From: a virus
Virus record (IMG/VR): IMGVR_UViG_3300025325_000148
Coordinates: 1-22,510 of that record
Direction: 5' to 3' (one strand)
Length of the DNA stretch: 22,510 bases
The stretch's first letter is position 1. Each line of letters opens with the position of its first letter. The translations under genes and the position numbers were made by a program. Positions 13,364-22,337 of this stretch are shown here, piece after piece. A model generated the notes under the pieces. That model searched no databases and was not told the DNA's origin. It saw only the letters and a list, made by a program, of their open reading frames with translations.

Positions 13364-14572
13364 TCATTTTACTAATTTGTAAATTACCGAAGGTTTTTTA
13401 CTTTCTCCGATACGTTCTCTCTCAACTTTTATTCTGTTACCTTCTGCCAGCGATTCCAATATCTTGTCTACAAAATTTTTAGGGTAGCCTGTATGGTTAA
13501 ATAGTTCCGACCTGCCGATACTGCCTCTCCTTGTTATCAATTCCACTACTCGTTTGGTAGCTTTCTCGAAAGGTGTGAATGCAAACTCTCTTTCGTATAA
13601 TCCCAGGAAGTTTCGTATGATATAATTACAGAATTGCGTAGCATCGGCTATATCCCCAGATGACATAACATTTGATCCCCGCATAGCGCAATTGCAAAGG
13701 GCTACTTTCCAAGCTATAGTATGTAATCTTGCTAAGACAGGTTGAGTTATCGGCGGCGCTTTTTCTATCTTATTCGATATATCGGCAAACCAATCTCTAT
13801 ACATTGTCTCGCCCTGCTTATCTATTGAAACAGGCCCCCTTACATTTGTCAAGCTTTTGAGCGCCAATAAACATTGCCTAAATAATGTATCATTGGGCAT
13901 TTTAGGTATAGCTTCCAACCTACTAAACTCGCCAGGGATAAATAAAAATCTCGCCAAAAATCCCGCCCTAAAATCATCTTCCTTATTCTCCTTCAGAAAC
14001 CAATCGAGAGTAGTGGCGGTGCCAATACAGGGGAAAGGTTGCTTGATTGTCTGCGTTCGCTGTTTTGTAGTTCGGGTATAGCTATCATCGCAATCATAAA
14101 GGTCAGTCAGAAATGCCTTTAACCCTTCGTTGTAGCTACTGTTAAGCATACCGAGAAATGCCATAAACTCCGAGTGGTAAAATATCGCATTAGGTTGCGT
14201 CTCCATCCAATCAAACATTGCTTCCCTTGTGAAATCCCCGGGTGCCAGTATCAGTGGTTTTACGTGATGTATCATATTTCTGGATATATATAGAGATGTG
14301 GATTTTCTTGACAGCGAAGAGCGGGCTATCAGGCAAATCCAGAAGTTTGGATATACGGGCCTATGTCCCAACGGAAACCATAACTGCCTACCAAGAACCG
14401 CGCCGATAGTAAAATAAGCCATAGCTGTTTGGAATTCTTTAGGAGCATCGCAACTCTCAGTAGCATACTTTGTATATAAAGTTACAAAATTATCCATTTT
14501 GTTTGACACAAATGTGTCGCTTATAGCAACCTTGCTTGCAGTAATTGTATTTACAGCGATTACACTTTCCAA
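13364..14572 (-). CDS. DUF3987-like P-loop ATPase with C-terminal winged helix
   Basis: The layout matches DUF3987-type ATPases of phages and plasmids, probably a replicative helicase or primase-helicase-like protein. A nucleotide-binding loop SSLSRKST is at residues 85-92 (TTG-start numbering), with Lys90 kept but Arg in place of the usual Gly before it. A Walker-B-like strand AIFYHSEF lies at 129-136. The LTDLYD segment is at 155-160, and GFLARFLF with a possible arginine finger Arg208 at 204-211. Residues ~340-402 look like a winged helix. The longest frame starts with TTG at 14572, with AGGGG about 8 bases upstream. An ATG at 14497 (residue 26) begins the conserved region but has no ribosome binding site, so the start is uncertain. 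It lies beside recombination nucleases. Confidence 0.7.
   Translation of the reverse strand: MESVIAVNTITASKVAISDTFVSNKMDNFVTLYTKYATESCDAPKEFQTAMAYFTIGAVLGRQLWFPLGHRPVYPNFWICLIARSSLSRKSTSLYISRNMIHHVKPLILAPGDFTREAMFDWMETQPNAIFYHSEFMAFLGMLNSSYNEGLKAFLTDLYDCDDSYTRTTKQRTQTIKQPFPCIGTATTLDWFLKENKEDDFRAGFLARFLFIPGEFSRLEAIPKMPNDTLFRQCLLALKSLTNVRGPVSIDKQGETMYRDWFADISNKIEKAPPITQPVLARLHTIAWKVALCNCAMRGSNVMSSGDIADATQFCNYIIRNFLGLYEREFAFTPFEKATKRVVELITRRGSIGRSELFNHTGYPKNFVDKILESLAEGNRIKVERERIGESKKPSVIYKLVK
14505..14518. promoter_or_regulatory. Palindrome at the ATPase gene start, possible operator
   Basis: GACACA and TGTGTC flank two bases to give a perfect 14-base inverted repeat. It lies 8 bases upstream of the alternative ATG at 14497 and inside the gene if the TTG at 14572 is used. 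It could be an operator or a translation-controlling hairpin, or chance. Confidence 0.25.
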
Positions 14573-14641: not shown

Positions 14642-15028
14642 TTACTCCCAGTTTACTAAACCTTTTGCGGTGTCTTTTATGCCTCGATATGCGTCGTCGT
14701 CTACAACCCTAATATGAACATCTGGAAAATATTTAGCCATTCTCTTTAGCTTCGTAGCACTCTTGCTATCCATCCAACCCTTGACTTCCCAATACTCTGT
14801 GAATCCGTCCTTCCAGATAACCGTGAAGTCGGGCTTATAAGTTCGAGTTCCTCGCTTAATCGCCTCGAAGGTAAACTCCTTTTCTTCGTATCTCCAGTCC
14901 TCTAACTCCTTGCATTCCTTCAGAAATTGCAAATAGCGGGCTATGTTAGCTTCCCATCGGCTTCGGAAGAATATCTCTCGACCTCCTATCTTGCGGAAGC
15001 CGCGCTTTACGTTTGTATATTTAGCCAT
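14642..15028 (-). CDS. DUF1064-like PD-(D/E)XK phage nuclease
   Basis: This is likely a small structure- or ssDNA/dsDNA-specific endonuclease of the restriction-endonuclease fold. From ATG 15028 (128 residues) the active-site pattern is clear: Glu26 in RSRWEAN, Asp67 in YKPDF, and Glu81-x-Lys83 in YWEVKGW, followed by LKRMAKYFPD, all in the order found in DUF1064-type phage proteins. A longer frame from a TTG at 15061 adds 11 residues but has no ribosome binding site. The ATG has a weak GAG 3 bases upstream and follows the DUF1064-like N-terminus better. A junction-resolving or recombination role beside the RecB-like exonuclease and annealing protein is inferred. Confidence 0.75.
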   Translation of the reverse strand: MAKYTNVKRGFRKIGGREIFFRSRWEANIARYLQFLKECKELEDWRYEEKEFTFEAIKRGTRTYKPDFTVIWKDGFTEYWEVKGWMDSKSATKLKRMAKYFPDVHIRVVDDDAYRGIKDTAKGLVNWE

Positions 15029-15128
15029 TTTCTCTATGCAATCGCATCTGTGCGGATTCAAAATTTTCGAGGCGCAAAAGCACCTGCCTAAGTTCCTCTT
15101 GAAATACCTTATTTAACTGTTTCTGCAA
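15021..15128 (-). CDS. Possible short ORF (35 aa), in frame after the preceding TGA
   Basis: A 35-codon frame from a TTG encodes an amphipathic helix (QKQLNKVFQEELRQVLLRLE, then NFESAQMRLHRENG). Its TAA lies just inside the nuclease gene start, a coupling-like overlap of 8 bases. It is in the same frame as the 96-residue zinc protein upstream, separated from its TGA by five codons, so it may instead be a readthrough extension or a cut-off tail of that gene. No strong ribosome binding site is seen. Confidence 0.3.
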   Translation of the reverse strand: MQKQLNKVFQEELRQVLLRLENFESAQMRLHRENG

Positions 15129-15470: not shown

Positions 15471-16226
15471 CTATTTGCCATTTTTCTTTAACCACTCCAG
15501 CCAATTGTATACAGTCAAGCACGCCTTGAAAGTTTCAAAGTGCTTATCGAGATTTTCTACTTTCCCGAAAGTATAATCACCAGTTTCTTTGGATAGGTGA
15601 AGTATCCAGCATTCTTCGGCGCCGTGTTTTTCTGCCTCGCTAAAATCGCCACCTAATTGACCATTATTCAAAGGACACGCATGGTATGCTGCAACTTGCA
15701 TATTATGCTCGGGATATATCCCACCTTTATTTGTTTTGAAGTCCACTATAACCAATTTGCCATTCAACATACCTACGCTATCTATTTTCCCTGCATAGCA
15801 ATATTCTTTATTCCAAACGAGAAGCTCATTTATAATAAGTTTATAATGCTTACCCTCCAGCTCTCTCCATTTAAGATACGCCTCGAAAGCGTTCCGAGTT
15901 CCCTCGTCATATACAGGTGCCTCTATTGGGTGTCCTTCAAGGTGTGCCTGCACAAGTCCGTGAGCATCCGTGCCTTCGCCTGCCGCTTTGTCTCTGATAA
16001 CATTGTCAGCACTCATAGCACTCTTAACAAATGGACTGGTAAAGAATTCTGCTTTGTCAAGCTTCATCGCCACGCTCAATTCTTCAATATTGTTATATAG
16101 ATACTCCATTACAGTTTTCTTTCGCCAGTAGTTTAGCATCGGCTTGTCTATAACCTTCAGGATTTTAGTAACTCTTGGATACTGCAATCCGTCAATGGTA
16201 TAGAAACTATCTTGCTTTTCTCTCAT
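15471..16226 (-). CDS. RecB/Cas4-like PD-(D/E)XK exonuclease
   Basis: This is probably the DNA end-resecting exonuclease of a phage recombination pair. Numbering from ATG 16226 (251 residues), the family signature is in order: GTDAHGLVQAHL with His89, INELLVWN with Glu134, AGKIDSVG with Asp149, VIVDFKTNK with Asp162 and Lys164, and QVAAYH with Gln177 and Tyr181. The sequence before it (TIDGLQYPRVTKILKVID) is also typical of this nuclease group. The ATG has GGAGG 9 bases upstream inside the overlapping zinc-ribbon gene; a GTG 14 codons earlier has no such site. Its closest functional partner is the annealing protein at 16952-17812, two small genes upstream. Such exonuclease/annealase pairs load the annealase on resected DNA. 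Confidence 0.85.
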   Translation of the reverse strand: MREKQDSFYTIDGLQYPRVTKILKVIDKPMLNYWRKKTVMEYLYNNIEELSVAMKLDKAEFFTSPFVKSAMSADNVIRDKAAGEGTDAHGLVQAHLEGHPIEAPVYDEGTRNAFEAYLKWRELEGKHYKLIINELLVWNKEYCYAGKIDSVGMLNGKLVIVDFKTNKGGIYPEHNMQVAAYHACPLNNGQLGGDFSEAEKHGAEECWILHLSKETGDYTFGKVENLDKHFETFKACLTVYNWLEWLKKNGK

Positions 16227-16359
16227 CTTTACTTTCCTCCCAATGAGTAATAAATCTTTTTGCAACACCCATTACTTCAAACCATCCGCCTTGACAACTT
16301 TGGCATAGCTTAAAAGGTCTTTTTCTCTTTGTCTTTCGACCACACTTTTTACATTTCAT
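16207..16359 (-). CDS. Small zinc-ribbon protein (50 aa)
   Basis: The 50-residue frame from ATG 16359 carries Cys3-x2-Cys6 and Cys19-x2-Cys22 around a very basic stretch (GRKTKRKRPFK), a classic four-cysteine zinc ribbon. A Trp- and charge-rich helical tail follows. Its end overlaps the exonuclease start by 20 bases. No ribosome binding site is present because the leader is the U-tract of a strong hairpin (16363-16395). Expression may therefore depend on readthrough or a new promoter. A longer frame to 16464 would cross both hairpins and lacks credible sequence. A DNA-binding partner of the exonuclease is possible. Confidence 0.6.
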   Translation of the reverse strand: MKCKKCGRKTKRKRPFKLCQSCQGGWFEVMGVAKRFITHWEESKDERKAR

Positions 16360-16362
16360 ATT

Positions 16363-16395
16363 AAAAAGAAGATAGGGCAAGCAAGCTGCCTGCCC
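16363..16395 (-). terminator. Intrinsic-terminator-like hairpin (leftward)
   Basis: On the minus strand GGGCAGGCA and TGCTTGCCC form a 9-base stem with one G-U pair and a 3-base loop, followed by TATCTTCTTTTT. This fits a rho-independent terminator for leftward transcription. It stands only 3 bases from the ATG of the zinc-ribbon gene, an unusual place that suggests attenuation. Confidence 0.65.
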
Positions 16396-16410
16396 GCTTC
16401 GGAGAGAGGT

Positions 16411-16478
16411 AAATAAAAGAGGCAGGTGGCGATACAAGCTTTTGGATGGATGCTGTCCGCCCAAAACTACCTGCCTCT
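16411..16478 (-). terminator. Second long hairpin with U-tract (leftward)
   Basis: On the minus strand AGAGGCAGGT (16478-16469) pairs perfectly with ACCTGCCTCT (16427-16418) over 10 bases and is followed by TTTATTT. The 41-base loop holds its own TTTTGG/CCAAAA stem. It looks like a terminator or a structured regulatory RNA, in tandem with the hairpin at 16363-16395. Confidence 0.5.
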
Positions 16479-16607
16479 AAACAAAAAGGGGGAAGGGAAT
16501 TTATTATCTTCTTGACTGCCTGTATCACCATAAATTGGAACTTTACATTTTGTAATATATAAATCCACATTTCGAGGTAAAAAACTTTGAAAATAGTGCA
16601 GATTTCT

Positions 16608-16952
16608 CTAACTACTATTACTCGGGTACAAAGATTTGAGCATATCTATACGTCGTTGAATTTGCTGATATTCGAAATCCCTGTTTCTCAGCCAAGCGAT
16701 TCTTTTTATGTAAATTTCGTCATTACGTTTCCACATCTTGACTTTTTCAAGTAAATCTGTTTTCTCGGATTCACTTAAATCGCAATACCTTTTGTGCAAA
16801 ACATTTTGGATATACCAGCGGACATCACTTTCCCATTCGCCGATTGCTGACCAGAAATCTTTGGGGAGCGAAGGGGTAGGCAGAGAACTCGGAGGGAGTG
16901 TATGAGGTGTCTCTGCCTCCCCTTGCTTAGCTAATGGGCGATTTTCTTCCAT
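16608..16952 (-). CDS. Helical phage protein of unknown function (114 aa)
   Basis: The family is not recognised. The ATG overlaps the stop of the annealing-protein gene (TAATG), so it is probably made with that protein. The first ~30 residues are Pro/Ser/Thr-rich and disordered; the remainder is helical and rich in Trp, Arg and Glu (FWSAIGEWESDVRWYIQNVL, then MWKRNDEIYIKRIAWLRN). No cysteine cluster or membrane segment is present. The tight coupling suggests a partner of the annealase, such as a loader or ssDNA-binding helper, but nothing in the sequence proves it. Two terminator-like hairpins follow it. Confidence 0.65.
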   Translation of the reverse strand: MEENRPLAKQGEAETPHTLPPSSLPTPSLPKDFWSAIGEWESDVRWYIQNVLHKRYCDLSESEKTDLLEKVKMWKRNDEIYIKRIAWLRNRDFEYQQIQRRIDMLKSLYPSNSS

Positions 16953-17812
16953 TAAAACTTCGGCTCCTCATTTGCAGGAGCTTCCGCCGCGGGCTCCCTA
17001 TCGTTTCTAATCTCAATCATACTTGCTATTTTTACGGCAGTATCCCTTTCCGTCAATTCCTTTAGATGCTCCGCACCAAAGTGCTTGTGAACTTCCGGCG
17101 CTTCCCATCCAATCTCCTTTGCTACCGCCCAGATTTGATTTATCTGCTTCTGGTTTATCATAGGGATATCTTTGGGTACAGGACGACTTTCGACTACTTC
17201 CGCCTCAATTACCTTTGGCTTTGGCTCAGCAGAATGAGAAATCGCTTTCTTTCTCCATTTAGTTTTCCCTTCTTTGTCTGTGTATGTCTCGGCATATTTA
17301 GCTTTCCAGTTTCTAATAAACTCTGGTTTCCAAAGCTCAAGCCCCATACCTAACCCCTTACATAATCGCATAAGAGCATTTGACCGGCAACCTTCTATCG
17401 TATCTCCATACGTCATCATTTTGTTTGCAGGAGAATAATTATTTTCACCGACCGCAGTGCCCATATACTTACCTTTTACAAATAAATGATACTCTCGGAG
17501 CATTAGGTTATCTTTAAGTTGTGGCTGCATATTTGTCGGAGTAGCCCAGGAGCCATTGCCAAACGCCTTATTTAACCTATCGACGTAGAAAGGCCACGGC
17601 AAGTATATCAACCCGTCCGGGCGTATTTCTACATCCGCTTCATTTACAGGTGCCGCAATAATAGCTATTTGCTCTGGTGCGAGATTCATTCCAATATCGC
17701 TTGCTGAAACCTGTATAGCAAACTCTACGTTTTGCGTCTTTTTTGTCTCCACGTTTTGCGTCTGAGTTTTCCCTGGCTCCCCTGTCGTCGCTATTGCTTT
17801 GCCACTTTCCAT
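16952..17812 (-). CDS. Mgm101-like single-strand annealing protein (Rad52 superfamily)
   Basis: The core at residues ~59-170 follows the yeast mitochondrial Mgm101 pattern closely: ADVEIRPDGLIYLPWPFY, LNKAFGNGSWATP, LREYHLFVKGKYMGTAVGE, then EGCRSNALMRLCKGLGMGLELW and PEFIRNWK. Mgm101 is a Rad52-related annealing protein, so this protein is expected to bind ssDNA and anneal complementary strands in phage recombination. The N-terminal ~45 residues are polar and probably disordered. A basic linker follows the core, then a helical module (MINQKQINQIWAVAKEIGWE, residues 218-237, and KELTERDTAVKIASMIE) like the C-terminal tails of other phage annealases. The start has GAGGAGG 4 bases upstream. The RecB-like exonuclease nearby is its likely partner. 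Confidence 0.8.
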   Translation of the reverse strand: MESGKAIATTGEPGKTQTQNVETKKTQNVEFAIQVSASDIGMNLAPEQIAIIAAPVNEADVEIRPDGLIYLPWPFYVDRLNKAFGNGSWATPTNMQPQLKDNLMLREYHLFVKGKYMGTAVGENNYSPANKMMTYGDTIEGCRSNALMRLCKGLGMGLELWKPEFIRNWKAKYAETYTDKEGKTKWRKKAISHSAEPKPKVIEAEVVESRPVPKDIPMINQKQINQIWAVAKEIGWEAPEVHKHFGAEHLKELTERDTAVKIASMIEIRNDREPAAEAPANEEPKF

Positions 17813-17841: not shown

Positions 17842-18213
17842 TTAAAAATTAACTCTCGCTATATTACTGTCAAGTGGTTTCTTCTTCGCCACTTTGGTCG
17901 TCCCTCGAAGTTTTCTTATATACGCGGTAAGCGCAGATCGGGGAATACGCCAATGTCCACCTTTTGTCCTCGCGGCTACAATTTCTCCGTTACGGCATAG
18001 TATTCTTAGTGATTCCCTATTGATACTTAATAAGGCAGACGCTTGCTTGACAGTATACAGTAGGGGTTTCTTTTGCTTTTGCTCTTTTTGCGACATCATC
18101 AGTTTCCGCTTTTCCTTCCTTAACATCTTAGAAAGCTCCCACTGCCATTTGCGAAATTCACGCTTCTGGTAAAGCTCGCTAACGATTTCTTTAACGCTTT
18201 TCTTTTCTTCCAC
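17842..18213 (-). CDS. HTH DNA-binding protein (MerR/excisionase-like, HTH_17 type)
   Basis: The centre reads YTVKQASALLSINRESLRIL followed by CRNGEIVAARTKGGHWRIPRSALTAYI, a clear helix-turn-helix with a wing of the MerR/Xis (HTH_17) type. Such small proteins act as excisionases, transcription regulators or origin-binding factors. The N-terminal ~50 residues are highly basic and helical; the C-terminus is basic too. The GTG at 18213 has AGAGG 7 bases upstream. A TTG five codons earlier (18228) has no ribosome binding site. It overlaps the end of the small membrane protein gene and directly precedes the annealing protein, so it could regulate this operon, but no integrase is visible to pair it with. 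Confidence 0.75.
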   Translation of the reverse strand: MEEKKSVKEIVSELYQKREFRKWQWELSKMLRKEKRKLMMSQKEQKQKKPLLYTVKQASALLSINRESLRILCRNGEIVAARTKGGHWRIPRSALTAYIRKLRGTTKVAKKKPLDSNIARVNF

Positions 18214-18340
18214 TGAATAACCTCTCAAGAATACTCATAATACATCCCAGAAGATATATAAGAGCGTATATAAGGATATTCCCTGAGAATATCACTCCTA
18301 TATAGAATAGTATAGTCAATAATTTCTCAATATCAATCAT
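18191..18340 (-). CDS. Small membrane protein (49 aa)
   Basis: From ATG 18340 the protein is an acidic N-terminus, then ~36 hydrophobic residues (7-42), then a basic tail SGRKEKR. The hydrophobic stretch has an SGN break, so it may be one long helix or two short ones; the basic tail would stay in the cytoplasm. The start is very well supported by AAAGGAGG 7 bases upstream. A small phage membrane protein of this kind could be a holin-like, superinfection-exclusion or host-modulating protein; there is no lysis enzyme nearby to favour holin. Its end overlaps the next gene by 23 bases. Confidence 0.65.
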   Translation of the reverse strand: MIDIEKLLTILFYIGVIFSGNILIYALIYLLGCIMSILERLFSGRKEKR

Positions 18341-21042: not shown

Positions 21043-21729
21043 TCAAATTTTGGGTTCTGGAAATCTCAAGTTCTTACGGATTATCTTACACATAGTTTTA
21101 TGGGTTTTTAATTTTACCGCATTCGCCGCATTCGCCGTATACGCCGCATACGCCGCCGCATTCACCGCATACGCCGCCGCATTCGCCGCATACGTCGCCG
21201 CATACGCCGCCGCATTCACCGCATACGCCGCCGCATTCACCGCATTCACCGCATACGCCGCCGCATACGCCGCTTCCCTTACTACTTCGATAGTCGCATC
21301 GTTTCTCGTCCACATTTCGGCGGCTTCAATCGCTTTTAAAGGTCGAAGTTCATTTTTAGGAATATATTTCAAAGATAATCTCGCACATTGGCAAGCAGTC
21401 CACACAATCTGTTTTTTCGTATTCCACTTTTTTTTATCAACCATTTTACCCGCAAGCCATAAAAGCCAATCGGCTCTCTCGCAATTTTTAAGAGCTGTTT
21501 TCCAATTCTTTTGCGTCTTAATCCAAACAACAGCTTCATTGCAAGCACCGACCGATTCTAAAAACTTAACTACATTTTCCATATTCTCTCCTTTCTTTTT
21601 CTTAATATCGTAAATTATACCCACTTGTCCCTTTTCCGCCTGCCTTAATAACTTTATGGCATTCTCGATTTCTGGAATTTGCTTTTTATAAATATCGGGG
21701 TGTTCGAGTTTATTGTCTGGAACGCTCAT
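21043..21729 (-). CDS. Imm5-like Ala-Tyr/Asn repeat protein with two good starts
   Basis: The middle (RADWLLWLAGKM at about 85-96 and an AxxCAR pattern near 112-116) followed by a long Ala-rich repeat with Tyr and Asn every third or fourth residue resembles phage proteins annotated as Imm5-like or putative immunity proteins; their true role is unclear to me. The repeat covers about residues 153-204. There are two starts with strong ribosome binding sites: ATG 21729 (AAAGGAGAG, 4-base gap), giving 228 residues, and ATG 21582 (AAAGGAGAG, 3-base gap), giving 179 residues that begin at the family-like part. The first 49 residues carry a helix (IPEIENAIKLLRQAEKG) similar to one in the gene at 20410-20829, so they may be a fused or added module. 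Confidence 0.65.
   Translation of the reverse strand: MSVPDNKLEHPDIYKKQIPEIENAIKLLRQAEKGQVGIIYDIKKKKGENMENVVKFLESVGACNEAVVWIKTQKNWKTALKNCERADWLLWLAGKMVDKKKWNTKKQIVWTACQCARLSLKYIPKNELRPLKAIEAAEMWTRNDATIEVVREAAYAAAYAVNAVNAAAYAVNAAAYAATYAANAAAYAVNAAAYAAYTANAANAVKLKTHKTMCKIIRKNLRFPEPKI
21117..21273. repeat. GC-rich low-complexity coding repeat
   Basis: Codon-sized units such as GCATTC, GCATAC and GCC recur with a longer 21-base unit (GCCGCATTCACCGCATACGCC), giving the Ala-Tyr-Ala-Val-Asn repeat on the minus strand. All three minus frames and several plus frames are open here, but the frames giving Gly/Cys or Ala/Phe repeats are shadows. Confidence 0.85.
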
Positions 21730-21749: not shown

Positions 21750-22337
21750 TTACTCTCCCCGTAGGTTTGCAGGCTTAACTTTAATCCAGTGACTAACTTC
21801 CGGGCAGTCAAAATATCCTATTCTGTAAGGAGCATTGGCTTTCTTTATCACTATGCCTTCGCCGCCGTTAGCGATAATCATCTTATAATAGTCCAGCTTG
21901 TTGGACCAAACTCTTTCGGGCATAGTGATATGTTTTGTAATAGGCAGGGTTGCTTCCAATATGCCTCGCCTTTCGGTTTCGGTATTATCCAAAAGTAGCT
22001 TGCCTGTCTTTTTGATTATACTGAATGCGTAAAACACTTCCTTCACCTCATACTTTCGCCACTTCAAAAGTTCTCCGTCAATTATTGTATCGCAGGGAAG
22101 ATACATTTCAAGTTCTTTTCGCAAGTTAGGTAAGGCGTGTGTTATGATGCTATGGTGGCGTGTCCATAATTCTACCTTGCCATTTTTATCCGTATGCACC
22201 ATACACCTCCAGCCGTCTCGCTTGGCTTCCGCCCACCAGTCAGCATCGTTGTTTAATCTTTCAGCTATACGACTGGCGGGCGAGGCATAGAGGGGCTTCT
22301 GTGGATAAAGATAGTCCTTATTACTAATTCTAATCAT
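21750..22337 (-). CDS. Minimal ATP-dependent DNA ligase (nucleotidyltransferase core)
   Basis: The covalent nucleotidyltransferase motifs are present in order: motif I AEAKRDGWR with the adenylated Lys39, WTRHH with Arg60 (motif Ia position), IIDGELL with Glu89 (motif III), GGEGIVIKK with Glu160 and Lys165 (motif IV), and HWIKVKP with Lys186 and Lys188 (motif V). The protein should transfer AMP from ATP and seal nicks in phage DNA. At 195 residues it ends seven residues after motif V, so the OB-fold domain of ordinary ligases is missing. ATG 22337 has GGGAG 10 bases upstream and overlaps the preceding gene by 8 bases. A nucleic-acid-independent nucleotidyltransferase is the alternative. Confidence 0.85.
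   Translation of the reverse strand: MIRISNKDYLYPQKPLYASPASRIAERLNNDADWWAEAKRDGWRCMVHTDKNGKVELWTRHHSIITHALPNLRKELEMYLPCDTIIDGELLKWRKYEVKEVFYAFSIIKKTGKLLLDNTETERRGILEATLPITKHITMPERVWSNKLDYYKMIIANGGEGIVIKKANAPYRIGYFDCPEVSHWIKVKPANLRGE

What the first reader, a model, noticed from the sequence alone, without database searches (positions are those of the whole stretch)
15471..17812. Mgm101-like annealing protein paired with a RecB-like exonuclease in a phage
Seen: residues 59-170 of the 16952-17812 product keep the order and key words of mitochondrial Mgm101 (EIRPDGLIYLP, LNKAFG, SNALMR, LELW, PEFIRNWK). A PD-(D/E)XK exonuclease with His89, Glu134, Asp149, Asp162 and Lys164 lies two small genes downstream. 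Known: Mgm101 is Rad52-related, and phage recombination systems pair an annealase with an exonuclease. Inference: this is a two-component recombination system in which the annealase is of the mitochondrial type, possibly with the coupled 114-residue protein and the zinc-ribbon protein as partners.
Basis: partly seen in the sequence, partly recalled or inferred. Interest (0 to 1): 0.6.

Follow-up and report, generated by a model that had tools for sequence, protein, structure and literature searches.

The report
Mitochondrial-type DNA annealing pair in phages
A group of uncultured phages carries, side by side, a DNA-annealing protein and a DNA-trimming enzyme whose closest structurally known relatives are the mitochondrial genome-maintenance proteins Mgm101 and MGME1, which points to a phage recombination system little seen before and to a possible source of mitochondrial DNA-repair genes.

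Summary
The 286-aa protein (16952-17812, -) is a clear Mgm101-family member: Pfam PF06420 E 7.8e-43, yeast Mgm101 E 1.8e-27, and a predicted core fold matching yeast Mgm101 (Z 18.9) before RAD52 and phage Sak. The window is part of a 38.7-kb phage genome with terminal repeats.

I found 44 viral contigs with this annealase. In 16, an MGME1-like nuclease follows it on the same strand, often overlapping; this was met in 8 of 11 contigs not used to build the nuclease profile (5 strong, 3 weak). Others have a different nuclease, Gam-like protein or SSB nearby. No RecT or ERF gene was found in 33 records. The annealase was not found in 50,697 named phages or in PHROGs. The 114-aa and zinc-ribbon genes were seen only in this phage, so nothing supports them as partners.

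Best reading: a Red/RecET-like exonuclease-annealase pair built from mitochondrial-type families. Function is untested. New variant of a known kind.

The parts
16952..17812 (-). Mgm101-family single-strand annealing protein, 286 aa; core residues about 43-192, plus a helical C-terminal tail (about 221-271) beyond the part that aligns with yeast Mgm101
   Evidence: PF06420 E 7.8e-43; yeast Mgm101 E 1.8e-27; core pLDDT block means 90-98, Z 18.9 to 9yi9
15471..16226 (-). RecB-type PD-(D/E)XK exonuclease, 251 aa from the ATG (an in-frame GTG start at 16268 is also possible); nearest solved relative is human MGME1
   Evidence: phrog_298 exonuclease E 5.6e-29; MGME1 profile E 1.4e-12; fold Z 17.4 to 5zyu against 12.7 for RecE; catalytic columns
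16608..16952 (-). 114-aa protein of unknown function, start overlapping the annealase stop (TAATG)
   Evidence: ORF, junction; no family above cut-off; not seen in the other loci
16375..16478 (-). two stable hairpins, one followed by TTTTATTT, between the 114-aa gene and the nuclease: possible terminator or attenuator
   Evidence: fold z-score -3.0, 10-nt perfect inverted repeat; terminator-like sites in the region not above chance
16207..16359 (-). small zinc-ribbon-like ORF (about 50 aa from its ATG), not seen in relatives
   Evidence: ORF; weak zinc-ribbon scores only; absent elsewhere
14642..15061 (-). 139-aa TnsA/resolvase-like PD-(D/E)XK protein, probable later step of the same module
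   Evidence: phrog_190 Holliday junction resolvase E 5.9e-11; DUF1064 E 1.6e-5
13364..14572 (-). 402-aa DUF3987 primase/helicase-like protein at the end of the same gene run
   Evidence: phrog_14296 DNA primase E 4.6e-28; PF13148 E 4.4e-10
17842..18228 (-). helix-turn-helix protein directly upstream of the annealase gene
   Evidence: PF12728 E 6.4e-14

Best explanation
The two genes encode a phage exonuclease-annealase recombination pair of the Red/RecET kind, built from different protein families. The MGME1-like nuclease would degrade one strand at phage DNA ends (inferred). The Mgm101-like protein would coat the exposed single strand as a ring or filament and anneal it to a complementary strand (inferred from yeast Mgm101 and the fold). 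This would serve repair, concatemer formation or circularisation of the terminally repeated genome, followed by a resolvase-like nuclease and a primase/helicase encoded in the same gene run (inferred). Shown here: family membership, predicted fold, conserved functional residues, and recurrent gene adjacency.
For: Mgm101 family by sequence and fold. Yeast residues reported as important (PMC5176325, PMC3823998) are kept: Y139, F153, C217, K218 and W257 correspond to Y70, F84, C151, K152 and W186. The nuclease has complete RecB-type motifs, and MGME1 is its nearest solved relative by profile and fold. The nuclease gene follows the annealase gene on the same strand, mostly overlapping it, in 16 of 44 contigs, 8 of them outside the profile's training set. 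Alternative nucleases, Gam/Gp157 or SSB lie nearby in other contigs, as around other phage annealases (own knowledge). No RecT or ERF gene in 33 records. The only two Rad52-profile matches are, by coordinate, the Mgm101-like proteins themselves.
Against: No activity has been measured. In this phage the nuclease is about 0.7 kb downstream, behind two private ORFs and a hairpin block that could terminate transcription. In 28 of 44 contigs no MGME1-like nuclease was detected near the annealase; some of those are contig ends. The three weakest nuclease matches (E 3e-6 to 1.2e-4) may be other RecB-type nucleases. The syntenic chromosomal copies in anammox bacteria have no nuclease beside them, so the annealase may work without one.
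Confidence: 0.8

Rival explanations
1. The Mgm101-like protein works alone (with host or phage SSB) in recombination-dependent replication, and the nuclease is a separate DNA-processing enzyme such as a flap or end-cleaning nuclease, as MGME1 is in mitochondria. Adjacency reflects only a shared replication module.
For: Anammox chromosomal copies lack a nuclease neighbour; most contigs have no MGME1-like nuclease nearby; MGME1 prefers single strands and cuts in both directions (PMC6237815), unlike lambda exonuclease.
Against: The gene order recurs in divergent contigs and was met in 8 of 11 new ones; where this nuclease is missing, another nuclease sometimes takes the slot.
Confidence: 0.25
2. 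Mgm101 reached phages from eukaryotes (gene capture) rather than being an old phage/bacterial family.
For: The literature found describes the family from eukaryotes (PMC5176325); the tree here is unrooted and holds one eukaryotic sequence.
Against: The viral and bacterial members are very diverse (21-40% identity to the window protein), and the single yeast sequence sits among viral sequences beside L018 (UFBoot 95). Recent capture would give a much shallower viral radiation.
Confidence: 0.1
3. The protein is an ordinary RecT/ERF/Sak-type annealase and the Mgm101 label is only a database accident.
For: These families are thought to share a Rad52-like core; phage Sak matches at Z 9.6.
Against: PF06420 is the only Pfam hit, there is no PHROG hit, and yeast Mgm101 leads RAD52 by 5.6 Z units and by 37% against 13% identity.
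Confidence: 0.03

Closest known systems
Yeast Mgm101 (PF06420; 9yi6-9yia)
   Same: Core sequence (45% identity in the pairwise alignment, 37% in the structural one), predicted fold, and equivalents of Y139, F153, C217, K218 and W257
   Different: Phage-encoded; extra helical C-terminal tail; Cys216 is Leu in this member; the basic triad is only partly matched; sits near a nuclease gene
Human MGME1 (5zyu, 8xa9)
   Same: RecB-type motifs including the His motif and QhXXY; nearest solved relative by profile (E 1.4e-12) and fold (Z 17.4, 3.1 Å, 195 residues)
   Different: About 15% identity; phage gene near an annealase gene; substrate preference unknown
Lambda Red (exo/beta) and Rac RecET pairs
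   Same: Same architecture: PD-(D/E)XK exonuclease encoded beside a single-strand annealing protein (own knowledge)
   Different: Annealase is Mgm101-type, not RecT/Red-beta; nuclease fold is nearer MGME1 than RecE (Z 12.7) or lambda exonuclease (Z about 9)
phrog_298 exonucleases of actinophages (Caron, Attoomi, Liebe)
   Same: Same nuclease family, 27-29% identity; 137 phage records match by tblastn
   Different: No Mgm101-like gene within 4 kb in the four records checked
Phage Sak / human RAD52
   Same: Rad52-like core fold (Z 9.6 and 13.3)
   Different: 12-14% identity; different sequence families

Membership tests
Mgm101 (PF06420) | Score above the family's curated cut-off | tested here: met
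   146 bits against a cut-off of 27; all 13 related records checked are over the cut-off
Mgm101 (PF06420) | Rad52-like core fold as solved for yeast Mgm101 | tested here: met
   Z 18.9, 2.0 Å over 152 residues, prediction without templates
Mgm101 (PF06420) | Residues reported as important in yeast (Y139, F153, C217, K218, W257) | tested here: met
   Y70, F84, C151, K152, W186; all but F153 invariant in 14 sequences
Mgm101 (PF06420) | Functional sites of yeast, not family-defining: Cys216 and basic triad K251-R252-K253 | tested here: not met
   C216 is Leu150 here and varies among relatives; triad only partly matched, though the stretch is rich in Lys/Arg
Mgm101 (PF06420) | Ring/filament formation and annealing of SSB-coated single strands | not testable with these tools
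   Needs biochemistry
RecB-type PD-(D/E)XK exonuclease, MGME1-like | Motifs Ia (His), I (Glu), II (Asp), III (DxK), IV (QhXXY) | tested here: met
   H89, E134, D149, D162-x-K164, Q177...Y181, invariant or nearly so in ten relatives
RecB-type PD-(D/E)XK exonuclease, MGME1-like | MGME1 as nearest solved structure | tested here: met
   Profile E 1.4e-12, next family 0.0022; Z 17.4, next 12.7
RecB-type PD-(D/E)XK exonuclease, MGME1-like | Exonuclease activity and its direction | not testable with these tools
   Needs biochemistry
Two-component phage recombination pair (Red/RecET type) | Exonuclease gene beside annealase gene, recurrently | tested here: met
   16 of 44 contigs, mostly overlapping genes; in the window itself separated by two ORFs
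Two-component phage recombination pair (Red/RecET type) | Physical interaction of the two proteins | not testable with these tools
   The helical C-terminal tail is a candidate contact, by analogy with Red-beta (inference)
RecT / ERF families | Match to PF03837 or PF04404 | tested here: not met
   Not among Pfam hits up to E 1; no match in 33 viral records

The most novel reading that the evidence does not exclude
Two mitochondrial genome-maintenance genes, Mgm101 and MGME1, descend from one phage exonuclease-annealase cassette of the kind seen here, adding to the phage-derived polymerase and helicase of mitochondria.
Probability: 0.15. Interest if true: 0.85.

Novelty: new variant of a known kind. 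Interest (0 to 1): 0.62.

Why it matters
Phage annealases are the basis of recombineering. This family is missing from the phage protein families and was not found in the 50,697 named phages searched here, so it is a possible new source of such tools and fills unannotated recombination slots in uncultured phages. It also makes the origin of mitochondrial Mgm101 testable, and offers a two-gene set in which both partners resemble mitochondrial DNA-maintenance proteins.

Tried and rejected
Partner role for the 114-aa and zinc-ribbon ORFs: dropped, since no other locus was seen to have them. A hidden Mgm101 beside the nuclease in four cultured phages: none. The C-terminal tail as a known phage domain: tblastn gave only chance matches. 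Rfam match for the hairpin block: none. A second Rad52 annealase in L026/L027: the two matches are the Mgm101-like proteins themselves by coordinate. Single-sequence search of the nuclease against solved structures found nothing; only profiles reached MGME1. Plasmid search: no match. The literature held here names no phage Mgm101 that I found; preprints and most subscription papers are not held, so prior reports cannot be excluded.

Full report
Observation. The window is a virus record of 22,510 bases. The 286-aa product hits only one Pfam family up to E 1, PF06420 Mgm101p, at 7.8e-43, and the solved yeast Mgm101 sequence at 1.8e-27, with 45% identity in the aligned core. The nuclease hits phrog_298 exonuclease at 5.6e-29.

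The virus. The same sequence lies in a longer contig (L002/G001, 38,739 bp): 22,493 bases are identical, and that contig has a 99-bp direct terminal repeat, which suggests a complete genome. It encodes terminase, portal and major head proteins by PHROG profiles, so this is a phage, most likely a tailed one.

Relatives. Searches of IMG/VR with growing alignments gave 33 contigs and 11 more, 44 in all including G001; two of them (L020, L022) look near-identical in gene layout. One genome scan gave four bacterial loci. No match was found in 50,697 phage records with the window protein at E 0.01 or with four divergent members at E 0.1, nor in plasmids with the window protein. PHROGs has no profile for the window protein, and no PHROG family matches more than one of the 14 aligned sequences.

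Structure. A template-free prediction from the phage alignment (33 sequences) has pLDDT block means of 90 to 98 over residues 41-190. Yeast Mgm101 is the best match (Z 18.9, 2.0 Å, 152 residues, 37% identity), then human RAD52 (Z 13.3, 2.7 Å, 132 residues) and phage Sak (Z 9.6, 3.5 Å, 115 residues). Two members, L026 and L027, also match the Rad52_Rad22 profile at 3.3e-5 and 1.0e-5, a sequence-level bridge between the families. Residues linked to function in yeast (PMC5176325, PMC3823998) are kept: Y70, F84, C151, K152, W186. Cys216 is not kept, and the basic triad only partly.

Nuclease. Ten relatives share H89, E134, D149, D162-x-K164, Q177 and Y181, the RecB-type motif set described for MGME1 (PMC6237815). 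A profile of these finds MGME1 at 1.4e-12, the next family at 0.0022. The predicted structure (mean pLDDT 78.6, from only eight sequences) matches MGME1 at Z 17.4 (3.1 Å, 195 residues), ahead of RecE at 12.7 (4.1 Å, 174 residues) and lambda exonuclease at about 9.

Pairing. In eight records (G001 among them) the nuclease lies downstream on the same strand, with gaps from -80 to +208 nt except for 683 nt in this phage. As a test, a profile built without the 11 later contigs found a nuclease directly after the annealase in eight of them: five at E 1.5e-8 or better and three between 3e-6 and 1.2e-4. Other contigs have a DnaQ-like exonuclease (L010, L020, and L022 by cluster), a Cas4-like protein (L015), another exonuclease family (L025), a Gam/Gp157-like protein (L009) or SSB (L006, L008, L024) near the annealase. 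RecT and ERF profiles find nothing in 33 records. I read this as an annealase slot with exchangeable nuclease partners.

What is particular to this phage. The annealase stop overlaps the start of the 114-aa gene, but that gene and the zinc-ribbon ORF were seen in no other locus. Between them and the nuclease lies a hairpin block (z-score -3.0) that may end or attenuate transcription; terminator-like sites in the region are not above chance. Two further genes on the same strand, resolvase-like and primase/helicase-like, fit a recombination-replication module.

Bacterial copies. In Jettenia- and Loosdrechtia-type anammox genomes, and in two further genomes of the same phylum sample, one of them a 3.8-Mb contig, the gene sits in a conserved chromosomal setting beside a LeuA-like gene (recognised by eye from its IFDTTLRDGEQSPG start) and, in three of the four, a TPR protein, with no nuclease and no recognised phage genes nearby. 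Five of 392 genomes sampled from that phylum have the family. This looks like an annealase settled in the bacterial chromosome.

Evolution. In an unrooted tree of the core (38 sequences) yeast Mgm101 groups with L018 (UFBoot 95) among viral sequences, and a fully supported split separates the window's group from the part of the tree that holds yeast. L018 has a phage integrase gene about 2 kb away. With one eukaryotic sequence and no root, direction cannot be settled. That mitochondrial polymerase and helicase resemble phage enzymes is own knowledge. The idea that both mitochondrial genes came from such a cassette is open, not shown.

Limits. Everything is computational. Contigs are viral by IMG/VR's classification and some are fragments, so absences are weak. 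The literature library lacks preprints and most subscription papers, and no paper describing the 2025 yeast Mgm101 structures was found in it.

Noticed in passing
L011 7848-8729, L012 7884-8711, L051 7453-8280, L052 7976-8803: Anammox-type planctomycete genomes carry an Mgm101-family gene at a conserved chromosomal place beside a LeuA-like gene, without recognised phage genes or a nuclease: apparently a settled bacterial Mgm101.
   Followed up: partly
L044 10527-10925 (G001 30027-30425, -): The full phage genome encodes a 132-aa protein matching only the N-terminal part of clamp-loader families (phrog_5846 E 2.1e-27), as if a truncated clamp loader.
   Followed up: no
window 21043-21729 (-): 228-aa protein with a long Ala/Tyr/Asn-rich repeat stretch, weakly like DUF6931 (E 1.1e-4, below cut-off).
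   Followed up: no
window 21750-22337 (-): 195-aa protein matching the middle of ATP-dependent DNA ligase profiles (phrog_114 E 1.2e-19), much shorter than the 634-position family.
   Followed up: no
window 16375-16478 (-): Strong hairpin pair inside the annealase-nuclease interval, not a known RNA family.
   Followed up: partly
L026 7989-8622 and L027 7752-8543 (annealase genes): These Mgm101-like proteins also match the Rad52_Rad22 Pfam profile (3.3e-5, 1.0e-5), linking the two families by sequence.
   Followed up: partly
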